53,777 nucleotides of DNA, taken from NCBI GenBank assembly GCA_020854755.1, contig JAHKLN010000032.1, positions 1 through 53,777 of the forward strand, in the 5' to 3' direction. The first letter of the stretch is position 1, and every line of letters starts with the position of its first letter. Shown here piece by piece: positions 35,954 to 48,146 of this stretch. The notes beneath the pieces are model-generated. The model was not told the origin of the DNA. It was given only the letters and a program-made list of their open reading frames with translations, and searched no databases. The DNA comes from Methanomicrobiaceae archaeon. Its GTDB lineage: Archaea; Halobacteriota; Methanomicrobia; Methanomicrobiales; Methanoculleaceae. Made by a program: the position numbers and the translations under genes.

Positions 35954-36826
35954 AAGGCCTCTCAGATAAAACCTAGGGTCATGGCATTCCGGGAAATTGA
36001 CGATGATCTCTGGGAAATTATCAGGAAATATCTCCCTCCAACAAAGCCGCACATCGGCCGGCCTCGGCGTGACCCCCGCCAGTTGATCAACGGCATCCTG
36101 TACGTCCTAACCACCGGCTGCACCTGGCACGACGTCCCGGAGAAATATGGTACCAAATCAACGGTACATCGCTATCACCTCGAACTCTGCGAGCGAGGAG
36201 CATATCAGGCGTTCTTCCTTGACCTTCTCCAATCGGGGTATGAGATCCGGAAAGTCGATCTCTCGCACTGCTCCATCGATACCAAGGATATCCCGGCGAA
36301 AAAAGGGGATCCACGGGGTATGATGGCTATAAAAAGGTGAACGGGAACAAGCTGAGCGCTCTGGTCGATCGGAATGGCCTGCCACTCGCCTGTACCGTTT
36401 CCCCGGCCAATGTCCACGATTCCCGGCTGTATCAGCCAACGCTGGAAGCATTTACGATTCCAGGAGTTTCCGATCAACCTTCGATCATCTCTGCCGATGC
36501 AGCCTACGATTCCCAGGAGATTCGTCAATACAATCGGAAGCAAAGAATTAAGAGCAATATCCCGGTAAACCGGAGATCCCGCATATATCCAAAGCGAGGA
36601 AGGCCGTTCTGGTTCGATCCAGAGCTCTGCAAGGCACGGAGTGCCATTGAACGGTTCTTCAGCTGGATTGAAGCGTTTAAGAAGATCGTTCCCCGATATG
36701 AGCGATATGAATACTCATTCCTCGGACTGATTCATCTGGCATGCACCATCATGGTCTGGAGAGTTTTGGGATGAGCTCAGCGTGTACGTATGAGATGGAC
36801 GAGCGAAAATCTCCCGATATAGCCTA
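35954..36826 (+). mobile_element. IS5-type insertion sequence
   Basis: About 870 bp containing a two-frame transposase. Imperfect ends are GGCCTCTCAGAT (left) and, inverted, GGCTATATCGGGAGAT (right), flanked by T/A-rich sequence. The boundaries are approximate and no target duplication is certain. It truncates pseudogene B. It is the only intact-looking mobile element in the window. Confidence 0.7.
35981..36774 (+). CDS. IS5 family transposase, -1 frameshift type
   Basis: Two overlapping frames (35981-36340 and a -1 frame ending 36774) give one DDE transposase of about 264 residues. The first part has WEIIRKYLPP, ILYVLTTGCTWHDVPE and the first Asp in HCSIDTKDIP. The second has ISADAAYDSQEIR (second Asp) and the final Glu in RSAIERFFSWIEAF. 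The shift can occur at A6G4 (36299-36308), giving PAKKRGSTGYDGYKK. IS elements of this group often use programmed frameshifting, so it may be active. Confidence 0.82.
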
Positions 36827-37193: not shown

Positions 37194-37202
37194 AAAAAAA
37201 AA
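37194..37202 (-). terminator. T9 tract for the 19-residue gene
   Basis: Nine A residues on the plus strand, read as T9 on the minus strand, begin 24 nt after the stop of the tiny gene at 37227. It supports a genuine short transcript. Confidence 0.5.
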
Positions 37203-37226: not shown

Positions 37227-37286
37227 TTACTTCTTCGGTGCAATAGGTTCGGCCTTCTTTGGTCTCTGGTCCTTTTCCTTTCCCAT
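37227..37286 (-). CDS. Putative 19-residue lysine-rich small protein
   Basis: MGKEKDQRPKKAEPIAPKK: seven lysines plus one arginine, and no hydrophobic stretch. A perfect GGAGGTG Shine-Dalgarno (37295-37301) lies 8 nt upstream of the ATG. An A/T-rich AATATTCATA about 60 nt upstream could be the TATA box, and a T9 tract follows the stop. The function is unknown; the charge suggests nucleic-acid or ribosome contact. It sits between IS debris and the hydrogenase locus, and chance cannot be excluded without homologs. Confidence 0.55.
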   Translation of the reverse strand: MGKEKDQRPKKAEPIAPKK

Positions 37287-37502
37287 AAGCCGAACACCTC
37301 CTGCCCTGGCGGGATATCTGTACGAATGACGGTCTAGTGTATGAATATTCCTCATCTCCTCTCCTGAATCGGGGATTCGGAAGCAGATTGGCAGCTATTT
37401 CGGCCCTGGCAGACCTTTCCCCTTATCTTGACGGAGTGCCGCGCCGGCACTGAACAGAGGCCTCACGATAGAACTATCACCGCTCCCGCCGAACTCTCGT
37501 CG

Positions 37503-37940
37503 ATGAAGATGGCAATCGGCATCGGAAACACCCTCAGGCGGGACGACGGGGCCGGCATATATGTGGCAAAACGGCTGGAAGGCAGCGGCTGGACTGCGCT
37601 GGACTGCGGCACCGCGCCTGAGAACTTTACGTCGGTGGTGCGGCGGGCGCACCCGGAGATCCTCGTCCTCGTCGACGCGGCAGAGATGGGTCTTTCGCCC
37701 GGCGAGTTCCGGATCATCGCCAAGGATGCGATCAGGGATGTAAGCATCGGCACCCATCACCTCCCCCTGACCCATCTCATCGATTACCTGCAGGACGCCG
37801 CCGGTTGCATCGTCTTTGTCGGCATCCAGCCGGCCGTCGTCCAGGACGGCGAGGGGCTCACCCCCGAAGTCATGAGGGGAGCAAACGATCTCGTGGAAAT
37901 CCTGAAAAAAGAATGTTTTGAGGCCCTCAGGCCGCTCTGA
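37503..37940 (+). CDS. Hydrogenase maturation protease
   Basis: 145-residue HycI/HyaD-type endopeptidase from the ATG at 37503. GIGNTLRRDDGAGIYVAKRL (about 5-24) holds the first Ni-binding acidic residue, and LVDAAEMG near 60-67 and a His in IGTHHLPLTHL near 84-94 supply the others. It converges on the Mbh operon, the two stop codons abutting at 37940/37941. Its likely substrate is the C-terminal extension of the large subunit at 39353-40585. Confidence 0.92.
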   Translation: MKMAIGIGNTLRRDDGAGIYVAKRLEGSGWTALDCGTAPENFTSVVRRAHPEILVLVDAAEMGLSPGEFRIIAKDAIRDVSIGTHHLPLTHLIDYLQDAAGCIVFVGIQPAVVQDGEGLTPEVMRGANDLVEILKKECFEALRPL

Positions 37941-38345
37941 TCACTCCACGATCAGGTTATCCGAATACCGGTCCTCATCTGCGAGCAGGAACTCTTCGGT
38001 CATCCTCAGCGAGCCCTTCGGGCAGATATCGGTGCACTGGGAGCAGAAGATGCACTGCGAGACGTAGATCCTGATCCGCTTCGTCTCCGGCACCGGCTCG
38101 ATGGCATGGGCCGGGCAGACCTTCGCACAGAGGTTGCACCCGATGCAGCCCTCCGGGTCATAGGTAATCTTCCCGCGGAACGCCGGCGGCAGCGCCACCG
38201 GGGGGTGGATAGCCGCTTCGCCCCGCCCGACCTTCTTCAAGAACTCCGTGACCGACGGAGGGAGATACTTTGCCGGGAAGACATTTGTCGCCGGCTCCCT
38301 GAAGAGCTGCCGCAGCAGCTCCGGTATCATGGGAAGGCTTGCCAT
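37941..38345 (-). CDS. mbhN: Mbh hydrogenase ferredoxin-like subunit MbhN
   Basis: 134-residue subunit homologous to NuoI/EchF. It carries two 4Fe-4S motifs: Cys67, Cys70, Cys73, Cys77 ([12 protein letters not shown]) and Cys98, Cys101, Cys104, Cys108 ([12 protein letters not shown]). It passes electrons between soluble ferredoxin and the small subunit. It is the last gene of the operon, 3 nt after mbhM, so it fixes the 3' end of the 14-gene unit. Confidence 0.93.
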
Positions 38346-38348
38346 AGT

Positions 38349-39356
38349 TTACCACACTCCAAACGTTGCATCCAGCACAATCAGAAGCAGTCCGAGGATT
38401 CCGAGCCCGCCGAACCAGATCCAGTAGACGGAGACGATCTGCGTGATCTTGAACCGCGCCATCGAGACCCGGATCAGGCTCACCGAGACGAAGACCACCA
38501 GCAGCACCTTGGCAAGGAAGAAGAGGAAGTCCACCGCGAGTGCCAGGGCCGGGCTCATCGCGACGAAGGTCGATATGTTCCAGGGCAGGAAGACGGCCAC
38601 GGCAATCGCTGCCATCGCAATCGTCCTCACGCCCTGCGCCAGGTAGAATAAGGCGAGATTTCTCCCCGAATATTCGACGAGCAGCCCGCCCGCGAGTTCC
38701 GTCTCCGCCTCCTGGGAATCAAACGGCACGCGGGAGAGCTCCGCAGGCGTCACCCATGCAAGGATCAGCAGGAGGATGATCCCTCCGATGATGCCGAGCG
38801 GTCCCATAACGCCCCAGAACGGGTTGGTCGCGATCGTCGCAAGCGAGAACGGGTAGGCGATGCCCGCCATACTGAGCCGCCACGCAATGGCGATGATCGC
38901 GATTGCGAGAGGGAACTCATAGGCCATCATCGTGACCATCTCACGCTGCGCGCCCACCGTGGCGTAGGGCGATCCCGAGGCGAATCCGCCGGCAACCATG
39001 GCAAGGGCGGGGACGGTGAGGAGGTACATGATGAGCACCAGATCGCCGTATGCCCCGAGGACCGGCATCAGGCTGCCTATCGGCAGGTAGAGGAGGATGG
39101 TGATGGACGACGCCAGCGCCAGGATCGGGGCGAAGTTGAAGAGCCACGGGATGGCGTTATCTGGGACGACGCTCTCCTTTCGGAGCAGTTTCATCGTATC
39201 GATGAAGGGCTGCCTGATCGGCGGGCCGATGCGTGCCTGCATGTGGGCCGCAAACTTCCGGTCGATCCCAAGGAAGAGGAGGCCTGCAAGGATGCCGAAG
39301 GCGGATATGGCGATCGTCCCGGCGACGGCCGGAAGCAGCGTCGTGGCAGGGCTCAT
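38349..39356 (-). CDS. mbhM: Mbh membrane anchor subunit MbhM (NuoH-like)
   Basis: 335 residues with about eight membrane helices, homologous to NuoH/EchB. The first cytoplasmic loop IDRKFAAHMQARIGPPIRQP matches the conserved arginine-rich loop contacting the hydrogenase module, and DSQEAETELAGG is the acidic loop of the family. It joins the peripheral arm to the antiporter module. It overlaps mbhL by 4 nt. Confidence 0.95.
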   Translation of the reverse strand: MSPATTLLPAVAGTIAISAFGILAGLLFLGIDRKFAAHMQARIGPPIRQPFIDTMKLLRKESVVPDNAIPWLFNFAPILALASSITILLYLPIGSLMPVLGAYGDLVLIMYLLTVPALAMVAGGFASGSPYATVGAQREMVTMMAYEFPLAIAIIAIAWRLSMAGIAYPFSLATIATNPFWGVMGPLGIIGGIILLLILAWVTPAELSRVPFDSQEAETELAGGLLVEYSGRNLALFYLAQGVRTIAMAAIAVAVFLPWNISTFVAMSPALALAVDFLFFLAKVLLVVFVSVSLIRVSMARFKITQIVSVYWIWFGGLGILGLLLIVLDATFGVW

Positions 39357-40585
39357 CGCATCAGCCTCCTCGTCTTCTCGACCGATAGCCGGGTCAATTC
39401 CTCTTTTGTCATGATCCCCCGCCTCCCGTCCCGGACGATCGCCACGCGGTCGGTGCAGGAGAGGCAGGGGTCGATCGATGCGACGACGATCGGGATATCG
39501 GCGATCTGTTCGCCTTCAAGCATCGGTATCCATGACATCAGGTTGCTGTACGAGGATGCCTTCACCTTCCATGTCGTCGGGTGCTCCTTCCCGTCCATCC
39601 GAACGTAGTGGAAGACCTCGCCCCGGGGGGCTTCGTGCCGTCCAATCGCCTCGCCGTGGGCCTTCTTGAACGCCGAGAGGATCTTCGGGATCTTCGCCTC
39701 CCAGGTGATATCTCCCGCCGGGATCAGGTCAAGGCACTGCCTGATGAGATCAACGGACTGATCGACCTCAAGCAGGCGGACGACGATCCGATCGTAGACG
39801 TCGCCCCGGGTCTCCCCCAGATAGGCGTCGGGCAGCACCGGGCTGATCTCGAGATCCCCGTAGGCGGCGTAGGGGTAATCCACCCGCACGTCCATCTTCA
39901 CGCCCGACGCCCGGGCAGTCGGCCCGACCGTGCAGAGTTTCAGGGCCTCCTCATGGGTGAGCACGCCGCAGTCCCTGCACCGCATCTGGATGGTCTTATC
40001 CTCCAGGAAGACCTGCAGGAGTTTCGCCTTCAGGTCGCTGTAATAGTCGAGGCAGTTATGGATCGTCTCGTGCTGGTCGGGGGTGATGTCGCGCCGCACC
40101 CCGCCGACCTGGATGATCCCGTAGTTGACCCGGTTCCCGGTCAGGAGTTCGAGGACGTCCATCGCGAACTCCCGCACCCGCCATGACAGGTGGAGGAGGG
40201 TATCGTAGCCCAGTTCGTGGGCGGCAACCCCGGCCCAGAGGATATGGGACTGGATCCGCTCGAACTCGGCGATGATGGCACGGATATAGTCGGCCCGCTC
40301 CGGCACCTCGATCTCCATGACCTGCTCGACGGCCCGTGCGAATGAAAGGGTGTGCGAGACACCGCAGATGCCGCAGATGCGGTCGGTGAGATGGACAATC
40401 TGCACCGGGTTGCGGCGCATGCCCATCCATTCAATCGCCCGATGCGCCTGGCCGGGTGCAAAATCGGCCTTCAGGATCCTCTCGCCCTCCATCTGGAAGG
40501 TGAACATCACCGGCTCTTTTAACGCCGGATGGGTCGGGCCTATGGGGACGGTGTAGGGTACCGCCTTCTTGGTATCGTCACTCAT
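39353..40585 (-). CDS. mbhL: Mbh [NiFe]-hydrogenase large subunit MbhL
   Basis: Catalytic subunit, 410 residues. Both nickel-ligating pairs are intact: Cys71/Cys74 in DRICGICGVSH and Cys374/Cys377 in DPCLSCTDR. It is therefore a real hydrogenase and not the NuoD homolog, which lacks them. About 33 residues follow the last Cys, so C-terminal processing by the adjacent protease is plausible. The sequence between is typical group 4 [NiFe]. It overlaps mbhK by 8 nt. Confidence 0.96.
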   Translation of the reverse strand: MSDDTKKAVPYTVPIGPTHPALKEPVMFTFQMEGERILKADFAPGQAHRAIEWMGMRRNPVQIVHLTDRICGICGVSHTLSFARAVEQVMEIEVPERADYIRAIIAEFERIQSHILWAGVAAHELGYDTLLHLSWRVREFAMDVLELLTGNRVNYGIIQVGGVRRDITPDQHETIHNCLDYYSDLKAKLLQVFLEDKTIQMRCRDCGVLTHEEALKLCTVGPTARASGVKMDVRVDYPYAAYGDLEISPVLPDAYLGETRGDVYDRIVVRLLEVDQSVDLIRQCLDLIPAGDITWEAKIPKILSAFKKAHGEAIGRHEAPRGEVFHYVRMDGKEHPTTWKVKASSYSNLMSWIPMLEGEQIADIPIVVASIDPCLSCTDRVAIVRDGRRGIMTKEELTRLSVEKTRRLMR

Positions 40586-41240
40586 GCCTCTGCTCCTCCT
40601 CTTCCGACGGCTTTTTGCCTTTGACCGCGGCCTCCGTCGTTCCTTCGGCCTGCACCTCTCCCTGCTCCTCCTTCTTCACCACCGGGCGGGCCGGACGGTT
40701 CGCCGGCCTTCCCACCGCCCACAGGTCTTTCACCATATGGTCGGGAACGCCGGTCTCGTCCTTCCTCCATGGATAGACGCCTTCTGGGAACTCCTCCGGC
40801 AAAAATAGCCGTCTGCTGTCGGGGATGTCGACGATCTCGATGCCGAGCATCTCCTGCTTCTCCCGCTCGGTGAAGAGCGCGCCCGGGATGAGGTCGGTGA
40901 TCGTCGGCATACGGAGATCGTCCTTCGGCAGGAGCACGGTAAAGGTCACGGTATACTCCCCGTGCCTGGTCCCGTAGTAGATCGTGAAGTGGTAGAGGAG
41001 CTCGAGCCCGTCCCCGAGATCGCTGCCCGAGACGACGGCGAGGTGCGGGAAATGGATCTCCATCAGCTTCTCAAGGGCGGGCCTGAACAGGTCGCGATCG
41101 ATATCGATCCAGATATTGTAGTTTGCGATCTTCTTCGATCCCTCTCTCCGCTCGGTGATCCGCGCCTCGCGTATGCCGTCCCCGAACTCACGGGTAAAGA
41201 CCTCGACGATCTCTTCCGGCGTCAGTCTTGCTTCGCTCAT
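40578..41240 (-). CDS. mbhK: Mbh subunit MbhK (NuoC-like)
   Basis: 220 residues from the ATG at 41240 (MSEARLTPEE); the open frame upstream is a shadow of mbhJ. The core matches NuoC/EchD: a DLIPGALFTEREKQEMLGIE stretch and LPEEFPEGVYPWRKDE. An unusual charged tail of about 35 residues (KKEEQGEVQAEG, KGKKPSEEEEQRHE) extends beyond the fold and looks disordered. It overlaps mbhJ by 4 nt. Confidence 0.92.
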   Translation of the reverse strand: MSEARLTPEEIVEVFTREFGDGIREARITERREGSKKIANYNIWIDIDRDLFRPALEKLMEIHFPHLAVVSGSDLGDGLELLYHFTIYYGTRHGEYTVTFTVLLPKDDLRMPTITDLIPGALFTEREKQEMLGIEIVDIPDSRRLFLPEEFPEGVYPWRKDETGVPDHMVKDLWAVGRPANRPARPVVKKEEQGEVQAEGTTEAAVKGKKPSEEEEQRHE

Positions 41241-41671
41241 GGCAGTTCCCCCTGCAGCCGCTCGAGCTTCTGCAGCGCCCTGACCACGCCGAAGATGATC
41301 CCCTCCGGGCGCGGCGGGCAGCCCGGGACATAAACGTCCACCGGGATCACGTCGTCGATGGGGCCGTCGAGGTTGTACGAGTCGTAAAACGGCCCTCCGG
41401 AGATGCCGCAGGCCCCCACGCACATGACCACCTTGGGGTCCGGTATCTGCTCGTAGACCCGCAGAAGGCGCGGTCGCATCTTCTTGACGACCGGCCCGGT
41501 CACAAGGAGCAGATCCGCGTGTTTGGGCGATCCCACGAGCTTGATCCCGAACCGTTCCGGATCGTATCTGGGTGTGAGCGTCGCCACTATCTCGATCTCG
41601 CAGCCGTTACAGGATCCCGAGTTGAAGTGGAATGCCCATAACGACCTGTTGAATGATTTTGTAATATTCAT
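41237..41671 (-). CDS. mbhJ: Mbh hydrogenase small subunit MbhJ (NuoB-like)
   Basis: 144 residues from the ATG at 41671. The proximal 4Fe-4S cluster ligands are Cys21/Cys24 (GSCNGCEIE), Cys88 (CVGACGISGG) and Cys118 (VPGCPPRPEG), as in NuoB and EchC. It connects MbhN to the Ni-Fe site in MbhL. It shares one base with mbhI (the two meet at 41671). Confidence 0.95.
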   Translation of the reverse strand: MNITKSFNRSLWAFHFNSGSCNGCEIEIVATLTPRYDPERFGIKLVGSPKHADLLLVTGPVVKKMRPRLLRVYEQIPDPKVVMCVGACGISGGPFYDSYNLDGPIDDVIPVDVYVPGCPPRPEGIIFGVVRALQKLERLQGELP

Positions 41672-42015
41672 CAGATCAGACCCACCATGACGAGGATGAG
41701 TGCCGTGGTACCGAGGAACCACAGGGTGTAGTCGTTCAGCACGCCGGTATGGAGCGGGACGATGCGGTCGAAGTATCCCTTCAGGGCCTCGGTGAACCCC
41801 CAGTAGAGGTGGCTGCCCCTGACATGGACGTCGCCCTTTTCAGGCTCGGCATTCCCTGACAGGAAGGGTTTTGTCTGCTCCGTACCGCGTTTATACCCGC
41901 TCTCTCCATATGCCCAGATCAGGTAGGCGATCACGGCGGCAATGCCCGCCGCCAGCAGCCAGACGACCGGGTTCCAGATCCCGTGGCCGGTATCGAGCGT
42001 CGAAAGAATGTCCAT
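41671..42015 (-). CDS. mbhI: Mbh subunit MbhI
   Basis: 114 residues with two membrane helices, one at each end (about 17-34 and 95-113), and a hydrophilic middle containing GDVHVRGSHLYWGFTEALKG. Position and size match MbhI of Pyrococcus, which links the antiporter-like and hydrogenase modules. There are no catalytic residues. Assignment rests mainly on gene order. Confidence 0.82.
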   Translation of the reverse strand: MDILSTLDTGHGIWNPVVWLLAAGIAAVIAYLIWAYGESGYKRGTEQTKPFLSGNAEPEKGDVHVRGSHLYWGFTEALKGYFDRIVPLHTGVLNDYTLWFLGTTALILVMVGLI

Positions 42016-42016
42016 A

Positions 42017-43591
42017 TCAGAGCCCCCCGAGCACCGATGCGATATATCCGCTCTGGTTCACGAGCGCTGCCGCAGCGGGCGCAACGAACTGGTCCACCAC
42101 CCATGCCGGTGCGAGGCCGAAGGCAACGGTGACCACCGCAAGGATGCCCATGCCGATCAGCATGGGAAGAGGCGCCTCCTTCACGTCTGCATACTCGGGC
42201 AGCCTCGGACCCATGAATATGGACTGGAACACCTTGACGAATGACGCCAGCATCAGAATGCTGACGACCATCGCGATGATCGCAAGGAGCGGGTTGAAGA
42301 GGAATACCGACTCGTAGATCATCAGTTTGGATGCGAATCCGTTGAACGGGGGTATCCCCGCGATTGCCAGCGCGCCAATGATAAAGAAGATCATCGTCCA
42401 TTTCATTGAGTGGCCGAGACCACCCAGTCTGTTTAAGTTTCGCGTTCCGGTACGATAAAAGATTGCACCCGCTGTCAGGAAGAGGAGACCCTTATACATG
42501 GCATGGTTGATGATGTGGAAGATGCCGCCCTCCATGGCGACAAGCCCGTAGGCGTCCATGAGCCCCTGCTGCCCGAGGACGGCGAGCCCGACCCCGACGC
42601 CGAGGAGCATGTAGCCCGTCTGGGAGACGGCGTGATAGGCCATGAGCCGTTTTACGTCCTTCTGCACGAGCGCCATCGTGACGCCGATGAACATCGAGAG
42701 GACGCCCAGTACGATGATGATCCAGCCGACGGCGAAGTAGTCGAGGGTCACGCTGTAAAGCGTGAACACGACCCTGAACACGCCGTACAGCCCCGCCTGG
42801 CTCGCGACGACCAGCAGCGCGGTGATCGAGCCCGGCGCCATCGAGTATGCGTCGGGTGTCCAGAAGTGGAGAGGGACCGCGCCCGCCTTCATCGCGAGCG
42901 CGGCGAGGAGGAGCACGAGCGCCACCTTGTCGAGCATGGTGAACTCTATCCTGCTTGCGAGCATGGCGATATTCAGGGCATTATACTGCCCGTAGAGGAG
43001 GGCTGTCGCAAATATGACGAAAAGGCCGCCGATTGTGCATAAGAATGCGTATTTCAGCCCCGCCTCGATGGCAACGCCCTTATCGTTGCGGTAGGCGATG
43101 AGCGCGGCGCCTGCAATGGAGTTGAGCTCTAAGAAGACGAAGAAGTTGAAGAGATCCCCGGTGCAGACCATCCCGAGAATGCCGGTAATGAGCAGGAGCA
43201 GCAGCGCATAGAATCCGTCCCTGCCGGTCAGCTTCGACTCGCTGATAAGCGAGTAGAGGGTCACTGCAAACCCGGATATCGCTGCGGTAACCACCATAAA
43301 AGCGCTCATCGCATCGACGGTGAAGATGATCCTGATCGGAATGCCGCCGGAGTCGATGGGAAGCGGGATATGCGGCGCTGCTGCGCCGAAGGCGTAGACC
43401 ACCGTTCCGACGGTGTAGACCTGGTAGGCAAGGACTGCCGCGATGGCCGCTGTTGCCGCCATCGCGGCAAAGATCCAGGCGTCTCTCGCCTGCCTGCTGT
43501 ACCTGCCGATCAGGGGTGTCGCGAAGGCGGCAAAGAGGGGCAGCGCAATGATGAGCGCCGGGGCATGCTGGGCTATGATACCGGGCGTCAT
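42017..43591 (-). CDS. mbhH: Mbh antiporter-like subunit MbhH (MrpD/NuoN-like)
   Basis: 524 residues and about 14 membrane helices. It belongs to the proton-translocating family shared by Mrp antiporters and complex I. The conserved helix with GLKYAFLCTIGGLFVIFATALL region and the loop KDVKRLMAYHAVSQTGYML (lysine, His) are present. It probably moves Na+ or H+ during H2/ferredoxin turnover. It overlaps mbhG by 4 nt. Confidence 0.94.
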   Translation of the reverse strand: MTPGIIAQHAPALIIALPLFAAFATPLIGRYSRQARDAWIFAAMAATAAIAAVLAYQVYTVGTVVYAFGAAAPHIPLPIDSGGIPIRIIFTVDAMSAFMVVTAAISGFAVTLYSLISESKLTGRDGFYALLLLLITGILGMVCTGDLFNFFVFLELNSIAGAALIAYRNDKGVAIEAGLKYAFLCTIGGLFVIFATALLYGQYNALNIAMLASRIEFTMLDKVALVLLLAALAMKAGAVPLHFWTPDAYSMAPGSITALLVVASQAGLYGVFRVVFTLYSVTLDYFAVGWIIIVLGVLSMFIGVTMALVQKDVKRLMAYHAVSQTGYMLLGVGVGLAVLGQQGLMDAYGLVAMEGGIFHIINHAMYKGLLFLTAGAIFYRTGTRNLNRLGGLGHSMKWTMIFFIIGALAIAGIPPFNGFASKLMIYESVFLFNPLLAIIAMVVSILMLASFVKVFQSIFMGPRLPEYADVKEAPLPMLIGMGILAVVTVAFGLAPAWVVDQFVAPAAAALVNQSGYIASVLGGL

Positions 43592-43932
43592 CCTCTCAAC
43601 TTCCTGATGCTGCCGGCATCAGCCGTGCCGTACTTCCGGTAGATCATCATGGCAAACGAGAGCAGCAGCGCGGTGGTCGCAATGCCGATGACGATGTTTG
43701 TCAGCGTCATCGCCTGGACGGTCGGCAGCACCATCGGCCCTTCGGGCGCATTGGTAAAGATCGGGGCGATCCCTCCCTGCCGGTATCCCAGCGTCACCAG
43801 GAAGAGGTTGACGCTCGCCTCCAGAAGGCTGACGCCCATGATCATCTTGATTATGTTCCTTCGAAAGAGCAGTGCTGTCAGGCCGATGCCTCCGATCACT
43901 GCTGCCGCTATAAATGGTAGATTATTGAACAC
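43588..43932 (-). CDS. mbhG: Mbh subunit MbhG (MnhC/NuoK-like)
   Basis: 114 residues with three membrane helices, typical of MrpC/NuoK. The helix MIMGVSLLEASVNLFLVTLG has the conserved Glu used in ion transfer, and LPTVQAMTLTNIVIGIATTA begins the last helix. It is coupled to mbhH (overlap 4 nt) and mbhF (overlap 1 nt). Confidence 0.94.
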   Translation of the reverse strand: MFNNLPFIAAAVIGGIGLTALLFRRNIIKMIMGVSLLEASVNLFLVTLGYRQGGIAPIFTNAPEGPMVLPTVQAMTLTNIVIGIATTALLLSFAMMIYRKYGTADAGSIRKLRG

Positions 43933-44396
43933 TACGCTTCCTCCCTGGTTCCTGAAAGCATATAGAGGATGATGACGCTCAGTGCGCCGAGCACCTCGAG
44001 CCCGACCGCCAGATTCATCAGGGGTATGACGCCTCCGGTATTCAGGTCGCCCGGGTTTGCGCCGGGAGCAACCGATGCCCCGAAGATGAGACCGGTATCC
44101 GCAACCCAGTTGTAGAAGAAGCCGGTACCGAACGCCAGTGCGGCGAGCGCGAGGCTGACGAAGATCAGCAGTCCTGCGAACTCGCAGTTCCGCAGGATAT
44201 CCTTGCTGAAGCGCCCCACCGCCGTCTCGTAGCGGTAGGCCACTATCATCAGGATGATGCCTGTTGCAAAGACCGCACCGCCCTGAAACCCGCCGCCGGG
44301 GGTGAGGTGGCCATGCGCCACGATGTAGAGCCCGAAGATGAGGATGAACGGGAAGAGCAGGTTTGCGGCGGCACGGACGACCTTACTCATATTCAT
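43932..44396 (-). CDS. mbhF: Mbh subunit MbhF (MnhB-like)
   Basis: 154 residues from the ATG at 44396 (MNMSKVVRAA); an in-frame ATG at 44390 is an alternative, and the longer frame is a shadow. Four helices and the MrpB signature HGHLTPGGGFQGGAVFA, a histidine/glycine loop, are visible. It overlaps mbhE by 14 nt. Confidence 0.93.
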   Translation of the reverse strand: MNMSKVVRAAANLLFPFILIFGLYIVAHGHLTPGGGFQGGAVFATGIILMIVAYRYETAVGRFSKDILRNCEFAGLLIFVSLALAALAFGTGFFYNWVADTGLIFGASVAPGANPGDLNTGGVIPLMNLAVGLEVLGALSVIILYMLSGTREEA

Positions 44397-44667
44397 ACTC
44401 GTCACCTGCCCGCAGCTTCCGGAATACAAGCCCGATCCCGAGGACCGCCGTAAACAGGACGGTGGCCTCCCCGAGGGTATCGAACCCTCTGAAGTCAAAG
44501 AGAACGGCTGTCACGATGTTGTTTATGCCGGCCAGTTCCTGCCCGTTCTCGATCATGTACTCGTCCATGTCGGCATACGCCGGGTTCCCGAACTCCAGCC
44601 CGATTGCGGGGATCAGGAATCCGCCCAGCAGAATGAGCACCGTTGCAGCCATGAGTATCTGTTTCAT
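44383..44667 (-). CDS. mbhE: Mbh subunit MbhE
   Basis: 94 residues with two helices. The start ATG at 44667 overlaps the mbhD stop (ATGA), which rules out the earlier ATG in frame. FRGFDTLGEATVLFTAVLGIG is the conserved MrpA C-terminal-like block found in MbhE. It ends in an acidic EYEYE tail. Confidence 0.9.
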   Translation of the reverse strand: MKQILMAATVLILLGGFLIPAIGLEFGNPAYADMDEYMIENGQELAGINNIVTAVLFDFRGFDTLGEATVLFTAVLGIGLVFRKLRAGDEYEYE

Positions 44668-44918
44668 TCTTCCGCGTCCTCCCACCGTGTTGTGCCCTTG
44701 ATGGCAAGGATAAAGATCGCCGTCGTCAGCCCGGCGCCGATCCCCGCCTCTGCTATCGCCACGTCCGGTGCCTGCAGGATGTAGAACTCCAGCGAGAGCA
44801 GGAAACTGAATATGCCGAATGCAATCGCGGCGGAGAGGAGGTCCCGGAAGCGCCAGACAAGCAGGGCGGAGACGACGAGCCCGATAAGCACCACGATATG
44901 TGCGATGTACTCGATCAT
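44664..44918 (-). CDS. mbhD: Mbh subunit MbhD (DUF4040)
   Basis: 84 residues with three helices, equivalent to part of the MrpA C-terminal domain. ILQAPDVAIAEAGIGAGLTT is the conserved Ala/Glu motif. It overlaps mbhC by 4 nt and mbhE by 4 nt. Confidence 0.9.
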   Translation of the reverse strand: MIEYIAHIVVLIGLVVSALLVWRFRDLLSAAIAFGIFSFLLSLEFYILQAPDVAIAEAGIGAGLTTAIFILAIKGTTRWEDAEE

Positions 44919-45271
44919 GGGTTCACCTCGGCGAGACGGTCGACGACGGCCTCCGCGGGTTTCTGGCCGCTCCGGTGGGCGGCCCGTGCAATGGCATGGG
45001 CGCCGGTTGCGTTCGTGAACGCAAGCGCAATCACGGCGATGATCGTGTGGACCGAGAGGACGATATACTGCCCGTCTCCCGTTCCGAAGAAGTGCGATGC
45101 ACCGTAGACAACGACGGCAAGGCCGAGAAAGATCGTGCCGAACGTGGTGGTCTTTGTCTCCGCGTGCAGGCGGGTGAAGACGTCGGGGAAGCGGAGGATG
45201 CCGATGACCCCGAGCGTATTGAAGATCAGACCGATAGCAAGGAAGATCAAAAAGATCAGGTCAACGACCAT
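44915..45271 (-). CDS. mbhC: Mbh subunit MbhC (MnhG-like)
   Basis: 118 residues from the ATG at 45271 (MVVDLIFLIF); the longer frame is shadow. Three helices follow the MnhG pattern, with LGVIGILRFPDVFTRLHAET in the loop. The hydrophilic tail AHRSGQKPAEAVVDRLAEV is normal for this subunit. There is a 1-nt gap to mbhB. Confidence 0.92.
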   Translation of the reverse strand: MVVDLIFLIFLAIGLIFNTLGVIGILRFPDVFTRLHAETKTTTFGTIFLGLAVVVYGASHFFGTGDGQYIVLSVHTIIAVIALAFTNATGAHAIARAAHRSGQKPAEAVVDRLAEVNP

Positions 45272-45272
45272 G

Positions 45273-45530
45273 CTACATCTCACCTCCGAGATATTTTGCG
45301 ATATAGAGCGTGCTGACAAACGATAGAAGTGCATAGACGATGGCAACGTCAATGAAGATAACCTGCCGGTAGAGCGCTCCCAGGAGTATCATCGATGCGA
45401 CGGTCAGCGTATTGACCGTATCCAGCGCGACGACCCTGTCGGGTGCGGTTGGACCAAGAATTAGCCGCACTATTGAGAGAACGATCAGTACAGCTAGGAC
45501 GATCACGGCGAAAAACCAGGCGTCGATCAT
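45273..45530 (-). CDS. mbhB: Mbh subunit MbhB (MnhF-like)
   Basis: 85 residues with three helices and the MnhF motif RLILGPTAPDRVVALDTVN at about 22-40. It overlaps mbhA by 4 nt. It is part of the Mrp-like sodium-handling module at the start of the operon. Confidence 0.93.
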   Translation of the reverse strand: MIDAWFFAVIVLAVLIVLSIVRLILGPTAPDRVVALDTVNTLTVASMILLGALYRQVIFIDVAIVYALLSFVSTLYIAKYLGGEM

Positions 45531-46054
45531 TCAGCGATTCTCCTGATCCATCTGGGGAAACTGAAGAAGGCCTCGACGTCCATGATGTCTGCGGTCTCTT
45601 TCTGCTCCACGCCCGGTTTGATGTTGATCATATGGACGAAGAAGTCGTTTGTCTCCTCGTCGACATGGACGGTGAGGGTGCCCGGTGTCAGCGTGATCGA
45701 GTTCGCGAGCAGGAGGACGCCCAGATCCGTCTTGAGGCCAGGCCTGATTCTGACAATCCCTGGCCTGATCCTGCCGGTGATCACCCGGTATGCCACATCC
45801 ACGTTTGCTTTTGCCATCTCAATAAAGAACGGCCCGATCAGGTAGGCCGCGAGTGTTCCCCATCTGACGGGATTTGCCATCCGGTAATCCCTGTTTGCGC
45901 AGAAAAAACCCCTCGAGATCGTGGCCGTCACAAGGCTCAGAAATGCACCCATCGCCAGCTCCGGGCCGGACCAGAGGACGAGTTCCCCGCTTCCTGCGGT
46001 CAGCAGCAGATAGATGATGAATGCAAAAAGTGCTGTAAGAATGAATGGAATCAT
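45527..46054 (-). CDS. mbhA: Mbh subunit MbhA (MnhE-like)
   Basis: 175 residues; the first gene of the operon. Helices occupy the N-terminal third, and GVLLLANSITLTPGTLTVHV is the conserved MnhE block. A GGTGAT Shine-Dalgarno precedes the ATG. From here all 14 genes (A to N) are codirectional with 4-nt overlaps or tiny gaps, in the same order as the Pyrococcus membrane-bound hydrogenase. Confidence 0.93.
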   Translation of the reverse strand: MIPFILTALFAFIIYLLLTAGSGELVLWSGPELAMGAFLSLVTATISRGFFCANRDYRMANPVRWGTLAAYLIGPFFIEMAKANVDVAYRVITGRIRPGIVRIRPGLKTDLGVLLLANSITLTPGTLTVHVDEETNDFFVHMINIKPGVEQKETADIMDVEAFFSFPRWIRRIAE

Positions 46055-46733: not shown

Positions 46734-48146
46734 ATGAGAGAGATGCCCCGCATTTACCTCGGAAAAATTCCCCTGCACTGGTGCGATCGCTGCCATGTGC
46801 CGGTGCTGGCCGGACGGTGCGGCTGCGGCGCCGAAGCAAGGCCCGTCCCCGTCACCCCTCCCGGGGATGCCCGCCCGGCATTCGAGGACGACATCGCACA
46901 TATCAACCGGGTCTACCGGGATCATTTCGGCAGCCCCCTGCTGCCTGACGGCCATATCGTCCTCCTGAACAAGGTGCCTTCTGAAGACCGGATGGACGAG
47001 ATCATCCTCGGCGGAGCGGTGGTGGGCGCCGTCCGGTACCTGCCCGGAGAGGATCGCTGGGAGCCGCTCCCCCGCCCATGCGCCTGCATGCTGATGAAGC
47101 CACAGAAACGATACGTGATCGCCGACGACGGGGCAATCCCGTCGATCAGCGAAGGCGCAAGCCTCCTCGCACCGGGCCTCGTCCGGATCGATCCGTCGGT
47201 TGCTGCTGGGGACGAGGTCTTTATCATGGACAGGAGCGGCGGGTGCATCGGGGTCGGGCGGGCACGCGTGGATGCCGCAGCAGCGGCGCAGATGGAGCGC
47301 GGGGTGGTGGTCCGGACGCGCAAGAACCTCCCATCGGACTGCGTCCCGGCGCCTGCCGGATGGGATCTGGCGGTGGAGGCGAACGCCGCCGTGCTTGCGG
47401 CGTACGAAGAGGCTTCGGTGCAGTTTGTCAGGGAGGTGGCGGCAGAGCACCCGCTCCCCCTCACCGTCTCCTACTCCGGGGGAAAGGACAGCCTTGCCAC
47501 ACTGCTCGTCGTCCTCAAGGCGGTCGGGAACGTTCCCCTGATCTTTGCCGACACCGGGCTTGAGTTTCCGGAGACCTACGAGAACGTGCGCGAGGTCGCG
47601 GAGTGCTACGGGCTCGACGTCGTCAGGATACGTGAAGAGGGGGCGTTTTTCGAGGCGCTTGAGCGCGAGGGCCCTCCCGCGGTCGATCTCCGGTGGTGCT
47701 GCAGGGTCTGCAAGCTGCACCCGGTCTCACGCCTGATCGAGAGGGAATGGGGGGAATGCCTCTCGTTTATCGGCCAGCGGAAATATGAGTCGGTACGGAG
47801 ATGGCAGAGCAGTAAGGTCTGGAGAAACGCACAGGTAAAAAACCAGGTCTCAGCAGCCCCGATCCAGCAATGGACGGCGATGCACGTCTGGCTCTATCTC
47901 TTCAGGGAGCGCGCGCCCTATAACCGGCTGTATCGACGCCGCCTGGACAGAATCGGCTGTTTTATGTGCCCCTCAAGCGATATCGCCACCCTGAGGATGA
48001 TAGAAGCAGAGTATCCGGAACTCTGGAGGATGTGGCGGGAGCACCTTGAGGCATGGCGGGAGAAGGAGGGGCTGCCCGCCGAGTGGGTGAGTGCTGCGGG
48101 ATGGCGCAGAAGGGGAGGCCGGGATGAAGCGGATAGCTATAATTGA
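46734..48146 (+). CDS. PUA-like and PAPS-reductase-family protein
   Basis: 470 residues. An N-terminal Cys cluster (WCDRCHVPVLAGRCGCG) is followed by a PUA-like RNA-binding region near 140-190 (GDEVFIMDRSGGCIGVGRA). A PP-loop ATPase/PAPS reductase domain starts at SYSGGKDSLATLL near 243. CCRVCK and IGCFMC near the C-terminal half may hold a metal or Fe-S cluster. Its combination suggests RNA sulfuration more than assimilatory sulfate reduction. It overlaps hisH by 23 nt. The start could also be the ATG at 46743. Confidence 0.82.
   Translation: MREMPRIYLGKIPLHWCDRCHVPVLAGRCGCGAEARPVPVTPPGDARPAFEDDIAHINRVYRDHFGSPLLPDGHIVLLNKVPSEDRMDEIILGGAVVGAVRYLPGEDRWEPLPRPCACMLMKPQKRYVIADDGAIPSISEGASLLAPGLVRIDPSVAAGDEVFIMDRSGGCIGVGRARVDAAAAAQMERGVVVRTRKNLPSDCVPAPAGWDLAVEANAAVLAAYEEASVQFVREVAAEHPLPLTVSYSGGKDSLATLLVVLKAVGNVPLIFADTGLEFPETYENVREVAECYGLDVVRIREEGAFFEALEREGPPAVDLRWCCRVCKLHPVSRLIEREWGECLSFIGQRKYESVRRWQSSKVWRNAQVKNQVSAAPIQQWTAMHVWLYLFRERAPYNRLYRRRLDRIGCFMCPSSDIATLRMIEAEYPELWRMWREHLEAWREKEGLPAEWVSAAGWRRRGGRDEADSYN

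What the first reader, a model, noticed from the sequence alone, without database searches (positions are those of the whole stretch)
37227..37286. Possible 19-residue lysine-rich gene with full expression signals
Below usual ORF cutoffs, yet it has a perfect GGAGGTG at ideal spacing, an upstream A/T-rich element and a T9 tract after the stop. The product MGKEKDQRPKKAEPIAPKK is strongly basic.
Basis: partly seen in the sequence, partly recalled or inferred. Interest (0 to 1): 0.6.

Follow-up and report, generated by a model that had tools for sequence, protein, structure and literature searches.

The report
Conserved tiny lysine-rich methanogen gene
The 19-residue lysine-rich reading frame is a real gene: many methane-producing archaea of the order Methanomicrobiales carry counterparts with the same promoter, leader and ribosome-binding site, encoding 15-35-residue positively charged peptides that match no Pfam or NCBIfam family and probably bind DNA, RNA or another negatively charged polymer.

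Summary
Synteny beside the hydrogenase protease gene hycI, then DNA and leader-profile searches, reveal an orthologous locus across Methanomicrobiales: 33 of 35 Methanoculleus genomes, sister genera, and members of three other families. They share a TATA box, an ATATCCC-type leader, GGAGGTG about 8 nt before ATG, a 15-35-residue lysine-rich ORF and usually a T-run. A profile built without the window finds this site at E=3.5e-7 in its genome (next best 0.13). Length changes keep frame and the ORF is better conserved than its leader. The ancestral order is PAPS-PUA gene, Mbh hydrogenase operon, hycI, small gene. Methanoculleus and genus g16 lost hydrogenase and hycI here but kept the small gene, so it is not merely a hydrogenase accessory. 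Relatives in one family are AAAKK/PAKK peptides resembling histone-H1 tails. Best explanation: a free, disordered polycation binding nucleic acid or another polyanion (inferred, untested). No Pfam or NCBIfam family matches. Expression has not been shown for any member.

The parts
37227..37286 (-). Small ORF, 19 aa lysine-rich (MGKEKDQRPKKAEPIAPKK) with TAA stop
   Evidence: Translation; orthologs at the same place in relatives; window-free profile hit covering TATA to codon 5
37295..37301 (-). Shine-Dalgarno GGAGGTG, 8 nt before ATG
   Evidence: Sequence; near-invariant in the family alignments with similar spacing
37287..37320 (-). Predicted 5' leader with the conserved GATATCCC motif (37318-37311); transcription start inferred about 25 nt after the TATA-like box
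   Evidence: Alignments; start site is an inference
37340..37349 (-). TATA-like element AATATTCATA, weaker than the family consensus AAAATTTATA
   Evidence: Alignment of 23 promoters
37194..37202 (-). T9 run, probable oligo-T terminator
   Evidence: 54 of 65 collected family genes have T5 or longer within 60 nt of the stop against 6% of random 60-mers
37503..37940 (+). hycI, hydrogenase maturation protease, divergent neighbour (context, not part of the gene)
   Evidence: Pfam HycI; same arrangement in G001, G004, G006, G044 and G046
37941..46054 (-). Mbh-type hydrogenase/Mrp operon (context)
   Evidence: Pfam hits for several subunits; homologous operon in relatives
46734..48146 (+). PAPS-reductase/PUA-type gene (context), marks the far end of the ancestral locus
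   Evidence: tblastn match at 46743-48143, 69% identity over 469 aa; Pfam of the G072 homolog

Best explanation
This is a genuine, separately transcribed small-protein gene that is widespread in Methanomicrobiales. Shown by comparison: conserved TATA box, leader, SD and genomic position, a frame-preserving ORF, and usually a T-run after the stop. Inferred: an archaeal promoter gives a short transcript of about 125 nt with a leader of about 34 nt, ribosomes start at GGAGGTG and make the peptide, and transcription ends in the T-run. Inferred: the peptide (family range 24-45% lysine, almost no hydrophobic residues) is disordered and works by charge, binding a polyanion, most likely nucleic acid (chromosomal DNA or rRNA), like a free-standing histone-H1-type tail. 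Estimates: real protein gene about 0.95; polyanion binder about 0.6; DNA/nucleoid in particular about 0.35.
For: Window-free profile finds the site at E=3.5e-7 genome-wide. Same position relative to hycI in four other genomes of three genera. Leader profile matches 33 of 35 g4 (Methanoculleus) genomes and members of g1, g2, g5, g8, g10, g16. In Methanoculleus: ORF identity 0.91, leader 0.70-0.75, downstream 0.38-0.53; variable columns by codon position 2, 10, 10; pN/pS 0.51; ORF length differences are all multiples of 3 and keep the AKKN end. T-runs after the stop strongly enriched. Net charge about +3 to +13 and AAAKK/PAKK peptides in g16 and g13. Kept where the Mbh operon and hycI were lost.
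Against: No transcript or peptide data. Charge and composition alone do not prove polyanion binding. The window copy is the most diverged of those in its family (R2 score 30.9 bits; weaker TATA), and no second species of its genus was available to test selection in this lineage.
Confidence: 0.6

Rival explanations
1. Accessory or regulatory peptide of the Mbh/Ech hydrogenase or Mrp antiporter, kept beside its operon for functional reasons.
For: Next gene on the same strand after Mbh-type operons (with hycI between, on the other strand) in the window, G001, G004, G006 and G044, and after Ech-like operons in G072 and G077; Mrp-type leftovers lie upstream in Methanoculleus and g16.
Against: Methanoculleus, g16 and G072:C5 lost the operon and hycI at this locus but keep the small gene under selection; M. 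marisnigri is reported to lack Mbh (PMC2686161). UBA207 has Mbh and hycI but no small gene beside hycI. The peptide has no hydrophobic segment.
Confidence: 0.12
2. Same gene, but the peptide acts on the ribosome or rRNA (a tiny ribosome-associated protein) rather than on DNA.
For: Extremely basic, very short, strong SD, single-gene unit.
Against: No homology tested to ribosomal proteins beyond profile libraries, which gave nothing; AAAKK/PAKK composition in g16 favours DNA-tail-like behaviour.
Confidence: 0.2
3. Leader peptide or upstream ORF that controls a downstream gene (attenuation).
For: Short charged ORF with a strongly conserved leader; SD lies in a predicted stem in many members.
Against: Downstream genes differ between lineages (transposase remnant in the window, Cache sensor in G004/G006, others elsewhere); a T-run follows the stop; SD pairing is not significantly above controls and is low in the window.
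Confidence: 0.05
4. Primarily a regulatory RNA whose ORF is incidental or secondary (dual-function RNA).
For: Promoter and leader are recognisable across genera when the peptide is not; dual-function RNAs are reported in M. mazei (PMC11456600).
Against: The ORF is more conserved than the leader within Methanoculleus, with coding-type substitutions and frame-preserving length changes; Rfam gives no match.
Confidence: 0.05
5. The family is real but the window copy is decaying: a diverged pseudogene next to an IS element.
For: Weaker TATA, lowest score among family members beside hycI, no AAAKK or QEKGKK end, and a split IS5-type transposase 0.5 kb away.
Against: ORF, SD, spacing and the longest T-run nearby are intact.
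Confidence: 0.12
6. Chance ORF.
For: Direct tblastn finds no relative and the direct DNA search no clear one; similar SD-start pairs occur elsewhere in the window.
Against: Window-free profile hit and conserved position in several genera.
Confidence: 0.02

Closest known systems
Lysine-rich histone-H1-like tails of bacterial DNA-binding proteins (HupB C-terminal domain, PMC5676037; AlgP KPAA repeats, PMC9239181)
   Same: Lysine/alanine/proline-rich, hydrophobic-poor; PAKK/KAAK-like motifs in the g16 and g13 relatives
   Different: Free 15-35 aa peptides with no folded DNA-binding domain; the window peptide itself has PKK/APKK but no PAKK or KAAK; DNA binding not tested; no homology claimed
Lysine-rich candidate nucleoid protein of Methanomassiliicoccales, WP_019177984.1 (PMC7613761)
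   Same: Small, basic, lysine-rich, single-gene unit in a methanogenic archaeon
   Different: 74 aa with a predicted novel fold and measured abundance; sequences were not compared here and the present peptides are far shorter
Small proteins of Methanosarcina mazei found by Ribo-seq (PMC11456600)
   Same: Small ORFs, many unannotated, in a methanogen, some conserved
   Different: Different phylogenetic group; the best leader-profile hits outside Methanomicrobiales are weak and often partial (E 3e-4 or worse)

Membership tests
Methanomicrobiales small lysine-rich gene family described here | TATA-leader-SD-start profile match | tested here: met
   Profile without the window: E=3.5e-7 in the genome, top hit
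Methanomicrobiales small lysine-rich gene family described here | Position divergent from hycI, or beyond the PAPS-PUA gene | tested here: met
Methanomicrobiales small lysine-rich gene family described here | Short lysine-rich, hydrophobic-poor product | tested here: met
   32% K, net +4, one hydrophobic residue besides M1
Methanomicrobiales small lysine-rich gene family described here | Detectable peptide similarity on its own | tested here: inconclusive
   tblastn none; profile of 5 peptides that includes the window gives E=0.042
Histone-H1-like / PAKK-tail nucleoid proteins | PAKK/KAAK motifs | tested here: not met
   Absent from the window peptide; AAAKK/PAKK-type in g16 and g13 relatives
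Histone-H1-like / PAKK-tail nucleoid proteins | Sequence-independent DNA binding | not testable with these tools
   Needs binding assays
Mbh hydrogenase accessory proteins | Occurs only with the hydrogenase | tested here: not met
   Kept in Methanoculleus and g16 where the operon and hycI are gone from the locus; M. marisnigri reported to lack Mbh
Known Pfam or NCBIfam family | Profile match | tested here: not met
   No hit for representative members up to E=10 (NCBIfam including the window peptide; Pfam relatives only)

The most novel reading that the evidence does not exclude
A new family of free-standing histone-H1-tail-like micro-proteins (15-35 aa, no folded domain) acts as a chromatin- or RNA-condensing factor across an archaeal order, with up to three different copies per genome under one shared promoter-leader design.
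Probability: 0.3. Interest if true: 0.85.

Novelty: new variant of a known kind. Interest (0 to 1): 0.62.

Why it matters
A gene family present in nearly all sampled Methanoculleus and in several families of an environmentally important methanogen order was found only by combining synteny with a promoter-leader profile; peptide searches miss it. If the peptides bind DNA or RNA they would be among the smallest proteins proposed for that role and would add to the variable set of archaeal nucleoid proteins. The profile (TATA, ATATCCC, GGAGGTG) gives a concrete way to find more such genes, and M. marisnigri JR1 is a sequenced, cultivated strain in which to test it.

Tried and rejected
tblastn of the 19-mer in 61 genomes and in plasmids: nothing. 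DNA of the window locus in relatives: mostly chance matches; the recurring 16-mer CCGCCAGGGCAGGAGG falls in an unrelated, probably coding stretch; the weak 77% piece in G012/G024 later proved to be the real ortholog. Strict patterns: too narrow. Protein profile of 5 peptides: clear hits only for the two g5 copies, weak for the window. SD-occluding hairpin as a conserved control element: SD is paired in many members, but not significantly more than in 10 control genes and hardly in the window; dropped. Mbh accessory idea: attractive from synteny, weakened by genomes that lost the operon. No structure prediction was run: the peptides are below or near the size limit and expected to be disordered.

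Full report
OBSERVATION. The ORF is on the minus strand, 37286-37227, and reads MGKEKDQRPKKAEPIAPKK. GGAGGTG (37301-37295) lies 8 nt before ATG, AATATTCATA lies at 37349-37340, and T9 lies at 37202-37194. Within the window alone this is suggestive only: 7 start codons follow one of 14 GGAGGTG at 4-11 nt and several of those are spurious; T-runs of 8 or more are rare, three in the window on both strands.

FIRST SEARCHES FAIL. tblastn of the 19-mer in 61 genomes of the family and order gives only the window itself; the locus DNA gives only weak, mostly chance-level pieces.

SYNTENY RESCUES IT. The gene sits next to and divergent from hycI (37503-37940, Pfam HycI), beyond the end of an Mbh-type hydrogenase/Mrp operon. 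At the same position, with GGAGGTG, G001 (MAG UBA206) has MAKSQKPQDKKQEKPQEKGKKK, G004 MAGKDKKGQAQAPVKNSEKQEKGKRK and G006 MAAKDKKAQAQEKKQGKQEKGKKN; G044, of another family, has MAKKGSKKQPKEPQQE. Aligned, the promoters and leaders are plainly homologous: AAAATTTATA, CATTGGTAGATATATCCCACC, GGGAGGGAGGTG, 8 nt, ATG. UBA207 (G002) has the operon and hycI but no such gene there.

ORDER-WIDE DISTRIBUTION. A DNA search with the G004 copy finds it in most g4 genomes. I take g4 to be Methanoculleus because the single contig of G010, 2,478,101 bp, equals the M. marisnigri JR1 genome size given in PMC2686161. A typical product is MAKDKKPQDKKQEKKAEKVQDKAKKN. A sequence-only profile (R1) over the 232 order genomes held gives strong matches in 33 of 35 g4 genomes and in members of g1, g2, g5, g8, g10 and g16. 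Inspected matches in g16 and g13 encode peptides such as MAAAKKAAAKKPEAKKAAKKKAAPKKK. Some g8 genomes carry up to three different copies. Outside the order the best matches are weak and often partial, E 3e-4 or worse. One inspected match, in G050, precedes an ordinary 106-aa ORF, so the profile is not perfectly specific.

LEAVE-ONE-OUT TEST. A profile built without the window sequence (R2) places the window site first in its own genome at E=3.5e-7, against 0.13 for the next. The other members were found by routes that began at this locus, so this is a leave-one-out test, not a blind one.

CODING EVIDENCE. In the aligned 26-codon Methanoculleus members the ORF is 91% identical on average, the 40 nt before it 70-75%, and the 60 nt after it 38-53%; variable columns fall 2, 10, 10 on codon positions 1, 2, 3 and pN/pS is 0.51. 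Across the genus, length changes keep frame through to the AKKN-type end. Of 65 collected genes 54 have T5 or longer within 60 nt after the stop, against 6% of random 60-mers; that set was gathered by a relaxed composition filter and may hold a few non-members.

WHAT THE NEIGHBOURHOOD SAYS. A PAPS-reductase/PUA gene (window 46734-48146 +) lies at the far end of the Mbh operon in the window and in G001. In Methanoculleus, g16 and G072:C5 the same gene sits 0.3-1.6 kb upstream of the small gene, with only a lone mnhB (Methanoculleus), mnhF-mnhG (g16) or nothing between. The simplest reading is one ancestral locus from which the hydrogenase operon and hycI were deleted while the small gene was kept. 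PMC2686161 independently reports that M. marisnigri lacks Mbh. So the peptide is not needed only for Mbh.

MECHANISM. Shown by comparison: gene structure, conservation and composition (24-45% K, net charge about +3 to +13, almost no hydrophobic residues). Inferred: short monocistronic transcript, translation from GGAGGTG, disordered polycation, electrostatic binding of a polyanion. The AAAKK/PAKK members resemble H1-type tails such as those of HupB (PMC5676037) and AlgP (PMC9239181), which favours nucleic acid; small basic proteins in single-gene units also fit criteria used for archaeal candidate nucleoid proteins (PMC7613761). rRNA or polyphosphate remain open. No Pfam or NCBIfam family matches and no paper in the library held the peptide strings searched; that does not show the genes are unannotated in public records, which could not be checked here.

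LEADER STRUCTURE. SD pairing with upstream or downstream bases is predicted in many members, but mean pairing (0.76) is not significantly above 10 control genes with GGAGGTG (0.61, p=0.08), and it is 0.29 in the window. No claim is made.

CAVEATS. There is no expression evidence. The window copy is more diverged than its relatives next to hycI, has a weak TATA, and lies near a split IS5-type transposase; early decay cannot be excluded because no second species of its genus is held.

Noticed in passing
L049-L052, L057-L059, L061, L063, L065, L067-L070 (Methanoculleus loci): A near-invariant 14-aa ORF MYKRRKSLWQKRxR after AAGGTGGAAG, beside a HycI-like protease gene of another type. It may be another small gene or part of a longer coding stretch.
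   Followed up: no
L246, L247, L257, L260, L261 (mnhB); L248-L251 (mnhF, mnhG): Intact orphan Mrp subunit genes remain where the Mbh operon has been lost between the PAPS-PUA gene and the small gene. They may have been kept for a function of their own.
   Followed up: partly
window 35981-36774: Transposase in two overlapping ORFs (Pfam DUF4096 and DDE_Tnp_1, IS4/5-type) about 0.5 kb downstream of the small gene.
   Followed up: no
L235 (G050:C1:1806700-1808300): A leader-profile match (E=1.7e-5) precedes a 106-aa ORF MGGEIYQAQV..., not a lysine-rich peptide: the leader type may be shared with another gene.
   Followed up: no
L076 / L114 (G002, UBA207): Has the Mbh operon and hycI, but no small gene beside hycI; a different gene follows.
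   Followed up: partly
L254 and L255 (G072): One genome with two PAPS-PUA loci, each followed by a different small lysine-rich gene, one of them after an Ech-like operon.
   Followed up: partly
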